Shown: positions 1,441 to 28,418 of the stretch, piece by piece
Layout of the letters: every line of letters starts with the position of its first letter
How positions within the stretch are numbered: the first letter of the stretch is position 1
Origin: Chloroflexota bacterium
GTDB taxonomy: Bacteria; Chloroflexota; Dehalococcoidia; Bin125
Direction: 5' to 3'
Length of the DNA stretch: 37,681 bases
NCBI GenBank assembly: GCA_009838915.1
Contig: VXQT01000021.1
Span: 1-37,681 of the forward strand
The notes under the pieces: model-generated
Seen by the model: the letters and a program-made list of their open reading frames with translations, nothing else
Told to the model about the DNA's origin: nothing
Database searches by the model: none
Translations under genes and position numbers: made by a program

Positions 1441-1515
1441 GCGGGAGTAGCTCAGTGGTAGAGCATCTGCTTCCCAAGCAGAGGGTCGCGGGTTCGAATC
1501 CCGTCTCCCGCTCCA
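1441..1515 (+). tRNA. tRNA-Gly (anticodon CCC)
   Basis: Complete cloverleaf: acceptor GCGGGAG pairs with CTCCCGC, the D-arm is GCTC...GAGC, anticodon stem TCTGC/GCAGA encloses the loop TTCCCAA with anticodon CCC (reads GGG), and the T-arm is GCGGG-TTCGAAT-CCCGT. The discriminator base T and CCA (1513-1515) are encoded in the genome. It stands alone between a membrane-protein pair and acyl-CoA dehydrogenase. Confidence 0.97.
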
Positions 1516-23079: not shown

Positions 23080-23382
23080 CTACCAGGAGCTCTTGCGCAC
23101 CCCGGGCAGCAGCCCCAGTGAGGCCATCTCGCGGAAGGTGATCCGGCTCAGGCCGAACTTGCGCATGTAGGCGCGCGGACGACCGGTGACGGCGCAGCGG
23201 TTCTTGAGCCGCGTCGGCGAGCTGTTGCGCGGCAGCGCCTGGAGCTGAAACTGGAGGTTCTGCTTCTCGCGCGGATTGTTCGATTCTTTGAGCTGCTGCT
23301 TCAGCGACTCGCGCCGGCTCTTGTACTTGTCGTGCATCTTGCGGCGCTTCAGGTCGCGGTGGATATTCGAGGTTCGGGCCAT
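23080..23382 (-). CDS. rpsN: 30S ribosomal protein S14, long zinc-free form
   Basis: Small-subunit ribosomal protein S14 (100 aa), assembling in the 30S head. It is the long, zinc-independent (C-minus) type: it lacks the two CxxC pairs of the 61-residue zinc form and ends [42 protein letters not shown], with the GRPR-x-Y motif intact. It stands outside a ribosomal-protein operon, downstream of the FTR gene. In many bacteria such free-standing C-minus S14 genes replace the zinc form in zinc shortage under Zur control; here that is inference, and I see no clear Zur palindrome upstream. Confidence 0.95.
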
Positions 23383-23458: not shown

Positions 23459-23935
23459 TCACTCCCGGCGCTTGCGCTTGTCAATCTTGCGACCGCTCTG
23501 CTCCTCCAGCCGACCCAGCGCGCGGCCCTTGTCCGGTTGCGGGTCCTTGCGCACGCCGTAGATCTGGATGCCCTCGTGGTCTTCTGGCAGATACTCGGTG
23601 ATGGGAAGACCTTCCTCATCGCAGAACAGCAGTCAATGGCAGTACTTCCAGCGCTGCATCTCCTCGCAGGGGCAGATCCAGGTCGACTCCTTGACCTCCT
23701 CCGCCTTGTCCTCGTAGAAGTTGCAGGGACACAGCGGTCGGCCGTAGTCGTCAATGTGCTTGGCCAGGCCAATCACCAGGAACTCGGTGATGTCCTGTTC
23801 GGGATGCAGATACGATCCGCTCTTCTCCGCGAAGTTGCGGGCGAACTTCCACATCTTGTTCAGGTTCTTCTCCGACGCCTGCTGACGATCGTCGTCGCTG
23901 ACCTGTTCCACATCAGCCATATGGTTGCCGCCCAT
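23459..23935 (-). CDS. Ferredoxin-thioredoxin reductase catalytic subunit, probable selenoprotein (UGA at 23633-23635)
   Basis: Iron-sulfur enzyme that passes electrons from ferredoxin to a thioredoxin disulfide. The signature CPC-x16-CPC-x8-CH-x is exact: GRPLCPC, WICPC, KYCH. Translation reaches a UGA right after CH (codon 101), where the family has the second Cys of CHC, the redox-active residue beside the cluster (Cys87 in the cyanobacterial enzyme). The frame continues 57 codons with family-like sequence (LLFCDEEGLPITEYLPEDHE...) to UGA at 23459-23461 after KRKRRE. With a SECIS-like hairpin just downstream, selenocysteine insertion is the best reading; a nonsense mutation is the alternative. 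The start may be the inner ATG at 23920 (MADVEQ). It lies between PAC2 and rpsN, same strand. Confidence 0.8.
23600..23620 (-). promoter_or_regulatory. Candidate bacterial SECIS hairpin
   Basis: Beginning 12 bases after the in-frame UGA, the mRNA can fold as GAUG, a bulged A, GGAA, loop GGUC, UUCC, CAUC: eight base pairs, a single bulged base on the 5' arm and a GGU in the apical loop. The E. coli fdhF SECIS has the same plan (bulged base, GGU in the loop, about 11 bases after UGA), with the loop one codon closer. The bulge here is A, whereas fdhF has U. Confidence 0.6.
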
Positions 23936-27389: not shown

Positions 27390-28418
27390 TTGGACTGGTT
27401 CACCGACCCTTGGGACTTCGAATTCATGTATCGCGCCCTGCTCGCGGGCGTCATCGTGTCGATCGCCGCCGGCATGGTCGGCGTGTTCGTCGTGCTGCGC
27501 GGACTCGCCTTCATGGGCGATGCCGTCGCCCACACGCAGCTCGCCGGAGCGGCCGTCGCCCTGGTGCTGGGCGGCGGCGCAGTGCTGATCACACTCGGCG
27601 CGGGCGTGGCCGCCGTACTCACCGCGCTCGGCGTCGCCCTGCTCACGATCCGCGGGCGCCTGCGCGAAGACACCGCTATCGGCATCATGTTCGCGGGCCT
27701 GTTTGCCCTCGGTATCGTCCTGATTTCAAGACAACGCACGCTCAATATCAGCCTGAACGATCTACTGGTCGGCGACATCCTCGGAGCGTCGTGGACCGAT
27801 CTGATGGTGATGGCGGCGCTGACAGTCGTCGTCGCACTGCTGGTGCTGTCCTTCCTGCCTGAGTTGCGGTTCACCGCCTACGACCCCGAGGTCGCCTCGG
27901 TTTCCGGGGTGCCGGTGACCTTGATGCAGATTGGCCTCCTCGTCTTGATCGCGCTGGCGACCGTCGTGGCCTTCCGGTTGGTTGGCGTAGTCCTGGCACT
28001 GGCGATGCTGGTCACTCCAGCGGCTGCAGCCGCGCTGTTGACCCGTCGGCTGACGATGATGATGCTGATCTCGACCATGGTCGGGGTCGTGTCTACGGTG
28101 GTCGGGCTGTACGCGTCGTTCTACTACGATCTGGCCGCAGGACCATCGATCGTGCTGGCGGCGGTTCTGATGATGGTGCTTGCGTTCATCCTGAGCCCGC
28201 GTGGACTGCGTTCAACCGTGCCATCGATGGACTTCCTGTTGGATGAAGGCGCGGGACCTGCGCCGACCGGCTGGCGGCGAACCGCCCGGATCTGCTGGGG
28301 CGCATGCTGCGTGGCCGGGGACGCTTCCTGGGGTGCCTGCTGCCGGGTCGGCGATGTCTGCTGGGGCGCATGCTGCCGAGTCGGCGAGCGTTTCTCGATG
28401 CGCGGCCGGACCGGCTAG
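27390..28418 (+). CDS. Zinc/manganese-type ABC transporter permease with Cys-rich tail
   Basis: ABC-3 family integral membrane protein (ZnuB/MntB/AztB type), 342 aa with about eight membrane segments. FMYRALLAGVIVSIAAGMVGVFVVLRGLAFMGDAVAHTQLAG is the family N-terminus; SVSGVPV and VGVVLALAMLVTPAAAAALLT form the later conserved part. The TTG at 27390 keeps the family WFTDPWDFEFM start; ATG at 27426 is an alternative. After LSPRGL, where most family members end, an extra tail of about 75 residues holds three repeats around WGACC with eight Cys. No ATPase gene is near, and the binding protein is on the other strand 0.6 kb away. The stop shares CTAG with the convergent orn stop. Confidence 0.88.
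   Translation: MDWFTDPWDFEFMYRALLAGVIVSIAAGMVGVFVVLRGLAFMGDAVAHTQLAGAAVALVLGGGAVLITLGAGVAAVLTALGVALLTIRGRLREDTAIGIMFAGLFALGIVLISRQRTLNISLNDLLVGDILGASWTDLMVMAALTVVVALLVLSFLPELRFTAYDPEVASVSGVPVTLMQIGLLVLIALATVVAFRLVGVVLALAMLVTPAAAAALLTRRLTMMMLISTMVGVVSTVVGLYASFYYDLAAGPSIVLAAVLMMVLAFILSPRGLRSTVPSMDFLLDEGAGPAPTGWRRTARICWGACCVAGDASWGACCRVGDVCWGACCRVGERFSMRGRTG
28293..28388 (+). repeat. Three-unit 33-base tandem repeat in the permease tail
   Basis: Units at 28293-28325, 28326-28358 and 28359-28388 (last one 30 bases) encode C/S-WGACC-x-x-G-D/E. Each unit carries the core TGGGG(C/T)GC(A/C)TGCTGC. The repeats are in frame with the permease and add eight Cys to its cytosolic end. Confidence 0.75.

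What the first reader, a model, noticed from the sequence alone, without database searches (positions are those of the whole stretch)
23459..23935. Probable selenocysteine at the redox-active Cys of ferredoxin-thioredoxin reductase
The reading frame holds the exact signature CPC-x16-CPC-x8-CH, then UGA in place of the last Cys of CHC. That Cys is one of the two active-site disulfide residues in the characterised enzyme (the other is the second Cys of the first CPC; the remaining four ligate the Fe-S cluster). After the UGA the frame stays open for 57 codons with sequence like that of the family and ends at a natural basic tail. A Cys-to-Sec swap at just the catalytic position is how known redox selenoproteins arise. 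I do not know whether a Sec form of this subunit has been reported.
Basis: partly seen in the sequence, partly recalled or inferred. Interest (0 to 1): 0.93.

Follow-up and report, generated by a model that had tools for sequence, protein, structure and literature searches.

The report
Single-selenocysteine ferredoxin-thioredoxin reductase
A bacterium related to the Dehalococcoidia has a UGA codon exactly where one of two catalytic cysteines of the enzyme ferredoxin-thioredoxin reductase belongs, and a conserved RNA hairpin plus the genes of the selenium-insertion machinery mean it is very likely read as selenocysteine; such enzymes were first predicted in 2008, and this single-selenium branch looks like a distinct, widespread variant.

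Summary
UGA 23635-23633 stands in frame at the last Cys of CPC-x16-CPC-x8-CHC; 57 family-like codons follow before the final stop. Independent lines support Sec: relatives have UGA or Cys at exactly this residue; 57 of 57 distinct UGA genes judged carry an invariant GGAAGGUCUUCC core in a covarying hairpin just downstream, against 0 of 16 Cys genes; codons after the UGA are under purifying selection; the genome has tRNA-Sec, SelA, a SelB domain and a SelD that itself has an in-frame UGA; SelA is present in 24 of 24 genomes with a single-UGA FTR. The kind is not new: Sec-FTR was predicted from ocean reads in 2008 (one with both redox Cys as Sec), and NCBIfam NF041072 models the double-Sec form. 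Ours fails that model (43.5 against 160 bits) and belongs to a separate single-Sec subfamily of Dehalococcoidia with a conserved C-terminal extension and a Cys four residues after Sec (55 of 58) that Cys forms mostly lack. A tree rejects one common Sec clade. The protein database searched lists it cut off at the UGA. Sec incorporation, the cluster and activity are unproven.

The parts
23459..23920 (-). FTR catalytic subunit gene, 153 residues with UGA read as Sec96; final stop TGA 23461-23459; alternative start ATG 23935
23633..23635 (-). In-frame UGA, codon 96, at the last Cys of CHC (Cys87 of Synechocystis FTR, numbering recalled)
23600..23620 (-). Predicted SECIS hairpin, GAUG-A-GGAA-GGUC-UUCC-CAUC, 12 bases after the UGA, one bulged base
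23604..23615 (-). Invariant hairpin core GGAAGGUCUUCC (57 of 57 Sec genes, 0 of 16 Cys genes)
23621..23623 (-). Codon of Cys100, four residues after Sec, linked to the Sec form in this clade
23723..23731 (-). First CPC: Cys64 (predicted cluster ligand) and Cys66 (predicted attacking redox Cys)
   Evidence: roles recalled from characterised FTRs
23666..23674 (-). Second CPC: Cys83 and Cys85, predicted cluster ligands
   Evidence: roles recalled
23639..23641 (-). Cys94 of CHU, predicted cluster ligand
   Evidence: role recalled

Best explanation
The window encodes a ferredoxin-thioredoxin reductase (FTR) catalytic subunit in which a UGA codon at the second redox-active Cys is very likely decoded as selenocysteine by the cell's own Sec machinery, directed by a predicted hairpin just downstream. 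By analogy with known FTRs, ferredoxin would hand electrons one at a time to a [4Fe-4S] cluster held by Cys64, 83, 85 and 94. The cluster would open a Cys66-Sec96 selenenylsulfide; Cys66 would attack the thioredoxin disulfide while Sec96, facing the cluster, would be held as a cluster-bound selenolate and then release reduced thioredoxin. Shown: the UGA, its alignment with Cys, the conserved covarying hairpin, selection after the UGA, the machinery genes, the predicted fold. Inferred: Sec incorporation in the cell, the cluster, electron donor, substrate and order of chemical steps.
For: Family and fold: PF02943 88.8 bits; model pLDDT 93.3 matching solved FTRs 7c3f, 7bzk, 7c2b and 1dj7 at 1.0-1.2 A over 88-89 columns, 41-45% identity. 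Site: 23 CHU genomes of 120, sister CHC forms at the same residue. Hairpin: core invariant in 57 of 57 Sec genes, 0 of 16 Cys genes; covariation score 0.208 against 0.087 shuffled, 0 of 500 reaching it. Selection after UGA. Machinery: tRNA-Sec, SelA, SelB winged-helix domain in a 689-residue frame, SelD with TGA. SelA in 24 of 24 single-UGA genomes against 79 of 120 overall. TGA also ends this gene, where same-genus relatives have TAG or TGA. Thioredoxin gene in the flank of 24 of 38 Sec loci outside the window's gene context.
Against: No direct proof of Sec or of activity. The hairpin folds no better than shuffles in a single sequence (z -0.47), Rfam has no matching family, and two of five covariation measures do not beat shuffles. 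No thioredoxin gene beside the window's own copy, 0 of 17 loci in that context. A TrxB-like flavoprotein, below the family cut-off, offers another route to thioredoxin.
Confidence: 0.88

Rival explanations
1. The UGA is a plain stop: the gene is a pseudogene, an assembly error, or makes a 95-residue protein ending at ...YCH.
For: Gene callers end it there: two database clusters of 95 residues, P0067 (75 member sequences) and P0098 (3).
Against: Same UGA in 58 distinct loci from many assemblies; purifying selection after it; invariant covarying hairpin; a stop there would remove an active-site residue.
Confidence: 0.02
2. UGA is read as another amino acid by a changed genetic code or a suppressor tRNA.
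For: One database protein (P0007) has Trp at this site; how it was translated was not checked.
Against: TGA ends this very gene; tRNA-Sec with anticodon TCA is found; the hairpin is present in the UGA genes only; the site is a redox Cys in Cys relatives.
Confidence: 0.01
3. Sec is inserted, but the main substrate is not a classical thioredoxin: a ferredoxin-dependent reductase of another disulfide.
For: Other FTR-fold enzymes are ferredoxin-dependent disulfide reductases of other make-up (4tpu, 7pwe); the window's neighbours are PAC2 and ribosomal S14 genes.
Against: The closest solved relatives are thioredoxin-reducing FTRs; a WCGPC thioredoxin lies in the flank of 24 of 38 Sec loci of other contexts, and this genome has a similar thioredoxin elsewhere (L145).
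Confidence: 0.15
4. The UGA is a selenium switch: without selenium a 95-residue form is made on purpose and has its own role.
For: UGA decoding competes with termination in selenoprotein genes in general (recalled).
Against: The short form lacks the second redox residue and a conserved C-terminal third; nothing found here points to a role for it.
Confidence: 0.04

Closest known systems
FTR selenoproteins of the Global Ocean Sampling study, 2008 (PMC2398784; abstract and passages seen, Figure 6A and Dataset S2 not seen)
   Same: FTR catalytic subunit with predicted Sec at redox-active Cys; two sequences were found, one with both redox Cys as Sec.
   Different: Ours has Sec at one redox position only. 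Whether the second ocean sequence is of this subfamily could not be seen.
NCBIfam NF041072, FtrB_double_U
   Same: FTR-type domain, Sec at the CxU position.
   Different: Two Sec; ours has one and scores 43.5 against a cut-off of 160, where a double-UGA relative (L065) scores 213.3.
Plant and cyanobacterial FTR (PDB 7c3f, 7bzk, 1dj7)
   Same: Fold and six-residue motif, 41-45% identity over 86-89 columns.
   Different: Two Cys at the active site; partner subunit FtrV, which this genome lacks; no C-terminal extension of this kind in the aligned part.
Methanosarcina ferredoxin-dependent disulfide reductase 4tpu and Desulfotalea glutaredoxin fusion 7pwe
   Same: FTR-type catalytic fold in non-photosynthetic microbes.
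   Different: Distant (18-26% identity in Foldseek alignments), other domain make-up.

Membership tests
FTR catalytic subunit (PF02943) | Profile match over the curated cut-off | tested here: met
   88.8 bits against 22
FTR catalytic subunit (PF02943) | CPC-x16-CPC-x8-CHC motif, with Cys or Sec at the last place | tested here: met
FTR catalytic subunit (PF02943) | FTR fold | tested here: met
   Predicted model matches solved FTRs at 1.0-1.2 A over 86-89 columns; two chains were aligned further at 9-11 A
FTR catalytic subunit (PF02943) | Partner subunit FtrV (defines the plant/cyanobacterial complex only; said to be exclusive to oxygenic phototrophs, PMC9025218 passage) | tested here: not met
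   No PF02941 match in the genome; control found it in Synechococcus
FTR catalytic subunit (PF02943) | [4Fe-4S] cluster and ferredoxin-dependent thioredoxin reduction | not testable with these tools
   Needs purified protein
NF041072 FtrB double-selenoprotein | Two Sec, at both redox positions | tested here: not met
   First redox residue is Cys, TGC
NF041072 FtrB double-selenoprotein | Score over the curated cut-off of 160 | tested here: not met
   43.4 and 43.5 bits; positive control L065 213.3
Bacterial selenoprotein | In-frame UGA aligned with Cys in homologues, conserved sequence after it | tested here: met
Bacterial selenoprotein | Hairpin just after the UGA, conserved with covariation | tested here: met
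Bacterial selenoprotein | tRNA-Sec, SelA, SelB, SelD in the genome | tested here: met
   (SelB by its winged-helix domain only)
Bacterial selenoprotein | Sec present in the protein | not testable with these tools
   Needs 75Se labelling or mass spectrometry

The most novel reading that the evidence does not exclude
Selenium has entered FTR-type enzymes on several separate occasions at the same cluster-facing residue, and the Dehalococcoidia line built its own design: a single selenolate that binds the [4Fe-4S] cluster during catalysis, paired with a new thiol four residues on that guards or resolves it, in a stand-alone enzyme whose conserved C-terminal extension stands in for FtrV. With the Cys-Cys and Sec-Sec forms it makes a natural series for testing what selenium does beside an iron-sulfur cluster.
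Probability: 0.3. Interest if true: 0.7.

Novelty: new variant of a known kind. Interest (0 to 1): 0.5.

Why it matters
FTR opens a disulfide with an iron-sulfur cluster, one electron at a time. A natural enzyme with selenium only at the cluster-side residue, with Cys-Cys relatives up to 77% identical and more distant Sec-Sec relatives, would let the role of selenium in that chemistry be measured directly. It also shows a redox gene, widespread in this bacterial class, listed in a large protein database cut short at the UGA, without its second active-site residue and its last third.

Tried and rejected
Pseudogene, sequencing error and a changed code were considered and rejected (see rivals).

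Is the extra Cys at Sec+4 forced by the RNA hairpin? Probably not: TGC (51) and TGT (4) are both used, three Sec genes with the intact hairpin core have Val (1) or Thr (2) there, and the codon lies outside the predicted stem. Is it a general partner of Sec? No: the 8 double-UGA loci and the CYU locus have Val there. On the main tree the Sec/Cys state changes only 4 times and one independent pair rests on well-supported branches, so the pair test has no power. It is reported as a clade-linked feature, not as proven coevolution. Model coordinates could not be read, so the Sec96-Cys100 distance is unknown.

A second hairpin register (columns 19-24 with 29-34) covaries less (score 0.014); by eye and by folding it suits the minority of genes with TCG or CCG before GGAA.

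The first motif scan was too loose and gave false matches; a profile search replaced it. Loci L069 and L139, cut off by a contig end before the UGA, could not be classed; the weak match in G039 (24.8 bits, 1 TGA) was not classed. In one search the pattern caught 5 of the 8 double-UGA loci and 18 of the 34 single-UGA rows it had found were used. Neighbouring genes in the window gave no clue to function. Rfam gave no SECIS match.

Full report
What is there. On the minus strand, 23920-23459 encodes a 153-residue FTR catalytic subunit if UGA at 23635-23633 is read through. The motif is CPC-x16-CPC-x8-CH-UGA; 57 codons follow and end at TGA 23461-23459. PF02943 matches at 88.8 bits. The predicted model (pLDDT 93.3) matches solved FTRs 7c3f, 7bzk, 7c2b and 1dj7 at 1.0-1.2 A over 88-89 columns with 41-45% identity; two of the chains listed were aligned further at 9-11 A, and the C-terminal part has no match.

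Why the UGA is very likely Sec. (1) Homologues: of 120 genomes searched, own included, 63 have a PF02943 match. Of these, 23 have the CHU form with one UGA, 1 (G070) has CYU in a form with a rubredoxin-like tail, and 8 have UGA at both redox positions. Related genes with Cys (CHC) exist. (2) RNA: of 58 distinct Sec genes, 57 could be judged (L141 is cut by its contig end). All 57 share GGAAGGUCUUCC at columns 21-32 counted from the U of UGA; none of 16 distinct Cys genes does. Over the 42 bases aligned, 33 of the 57 are distinct. There the named hairpin has 93.6% of cells paired against 85.7% in shuffles, 20 cells changed on both sides against 7.9, and a covariation score of 0.208 against 0.087, each reached by 0 of 500 shuffles; slid controls reach at most 62.1% and 0.057. 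Two other measures do not beat the shuffles: pairs changed on both sides, 3 against 2.4, and further pair types, 6 against 5.1. Six genes switch the pair at columns 18/34 from U-A to C-G, and three others have C-G at 19/34; these nine have Val instead of Ile in the protein, against 0 of 16 Cys genes, as if the RNA stem set the amino acid. A single-sequence fold is not unusual (z -0.47). (3) Selection: in 33 codons after the hairpin, median dN/dS is 0.082 for 14 same-genus genes (91 pairs) and 0.182 for 56 distinct genes; the 33 codons before the UGA give about 0 and 0.174, so within the genus the part before is more conserved still. (4) Machinery: tRNA-Sec with anticodon TCA, SelA (425.8 bits), a SelB winged-helix domain in a 689-residue frame, and SelD with an in-frame TGA in GG-Sec-GSK. 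Among the 120 genomes SelA is over the cut-off in 24 of 24 with a single-UGA FTR, 7 of 8 with a double-UGA FTR (the miss, G047, is 71% complete), 7 of 12 with the CHC form (one of these, G043, also has the double-UGA form), and 79 of 120 overall. Same-genus genomes are not independent.

Relatives and spread. The pattern search of 84,980 species genomes gave 61 loci, nearly all in records titled Dehalococcoidia, Chloroflexi or Chloroflexota; the nearest, L081, is 95% identical. Of these, 55 have Sec and 5 Cys, and L139 is cut off. In an even draw of 301 genomes of the phylum, 25 match the alignment and 7 score over 200 bits, all in the window's class: 4 with UGA, 3 without.

History. In a tree of 49 core domains the Sec/Cys state needs at least 3 changes, and holding all 24 Sec rows as one side of a branch is rejected (AU p 9e-33). 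The bootstrap had not settled, some long branches meet and the root is not inferred, so gains and losses cannot be told apart. In the double-UGA loci the stretches after both UGAs fold into hairpins with other sequences.

What marks the single-Sec subfamily. (a) It fails NF041072 (43.5 against 160 bits) where a double-UGA relative scores 213.3. (b) Cys stands four residues after Sec in 55 of 58 distinct genes (1 Val, 2 Thr); 16 distinct Cys genes have 15 Val and 1 Thr. Of the 120 database proteins listed (of 1613 found), 117 have CHC, and 4 of these have Cys there (some are the same genes). The number of independent events is small. (c) A conserved C-terminal extension is shared with its Cys relatives. 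(d) The genome has no FtrV; the control search found it in Synechococcus.

Partner. Of the 55 Sec loci, 17 lie in the PAC2-FTR-S14 context of the window's own family and 38 do not. A WCGPC thioredoxin gene lies in the fetched flank (3 kb or less) of 24 of these 38, of 0 of the 17, and of 0 of 5 Cys loci. The window's genome has such a thioredoxin elsewhere (L145) and a TrxB-like flavoprotein with a glutaredoxin-like front part, 285.9 bits against a cut-off of 343.45.

Mechanism. In characterised FTRs (recalled; Dai et al. 2007, cited in PMC2398784 but not read here) the second redox Cys faces the cluster and binds it in the intermediate while the first attacks thioredoxin. Sec on the cluster side would give a more easily cleaved bond and a selenolate ligand. 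PMC7684303 (passages) describes the superoxidised 3+ cluster state in FTR. PMC9025218 (passages) says that FtrV is exclusive to oxygenic phototrophs and may protect the cluster. All catalysis here is inferred.

Known or new. Searches of the open-paper library led to Sec-FTR in PMC2398784 (abstract and passages), PMC9312934 (passages; table row with motif CxU) and PMC13188914 (passages; table row NF041072, CxU, 2). In PMC12013277 a term search found no ferredoxin, FTR or Chloroflexi. None of the passages seen describes a single-Sec Dehalococcoidia subfamily, its hairpin or the extra Cys; but the 2008 figure and data set were not seen, and most subscription papers are not held. So: a known kind, with a distinct variant.

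Noticed in passing
L060, L061, L063, L065, L071, L072, L074, L075: Eight relatives' genomes carry an FTR-type gene with UGA at both redox positions (CPU...CPC...CIU), with a folded stretch after each UGA; G043 has a Cys FTR of the window's type about 300 bases away on the other strand.
   Followed up: partly
L059 (G070:C65): An FTR with a rubredoxin-like C-terminal part has UGA at the same last Cys (CYU), among Cys relatives: a further separate Sec/Cys change in the tree.
   Followed up: partly
L043 (G000:C24): SelD of this genome has an in-frame TGA in GG-Sec-GSK; Sec-containing SelD is known (recalled).
   Followed up: partly
window 23080-23382 (-) and 27390-28418 (+): Ribosomal protein S14 of 100 residues with a single Cys, hence likely zinc-free, lies downstream of the FTR; an ABC-3 (metal-type) permease gene lies 4 kb off. 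Perhaps a zinc-responsive neighbourhood.
   Followed up: no
L142 (G000:C11): TrxB-like flavoprotein with CSTC motif and a glutaredoxin-like front part in one frame.
   Followed up: no
L012 (G000:C33:21615-21860): A second, distant FTR-like gene (31.8 bits) with Cys only (CPC, CVC, CFC); a match of this weak type is listed in 14 of the 15 genomes of the genus.
   Followed up: no
P0067, P0098, P0007 (database proteins): Two clusters (75 and 3 members) end exactly before the Sec residue (...WKYCH); one protein has Trp at the Sec site, perhaps translated with a code that reads TGA as Trp.
   Followed up: no
window 1441-1512 (+): An ordinary tRNA gene, 75.5 bits.
   Followed up: no
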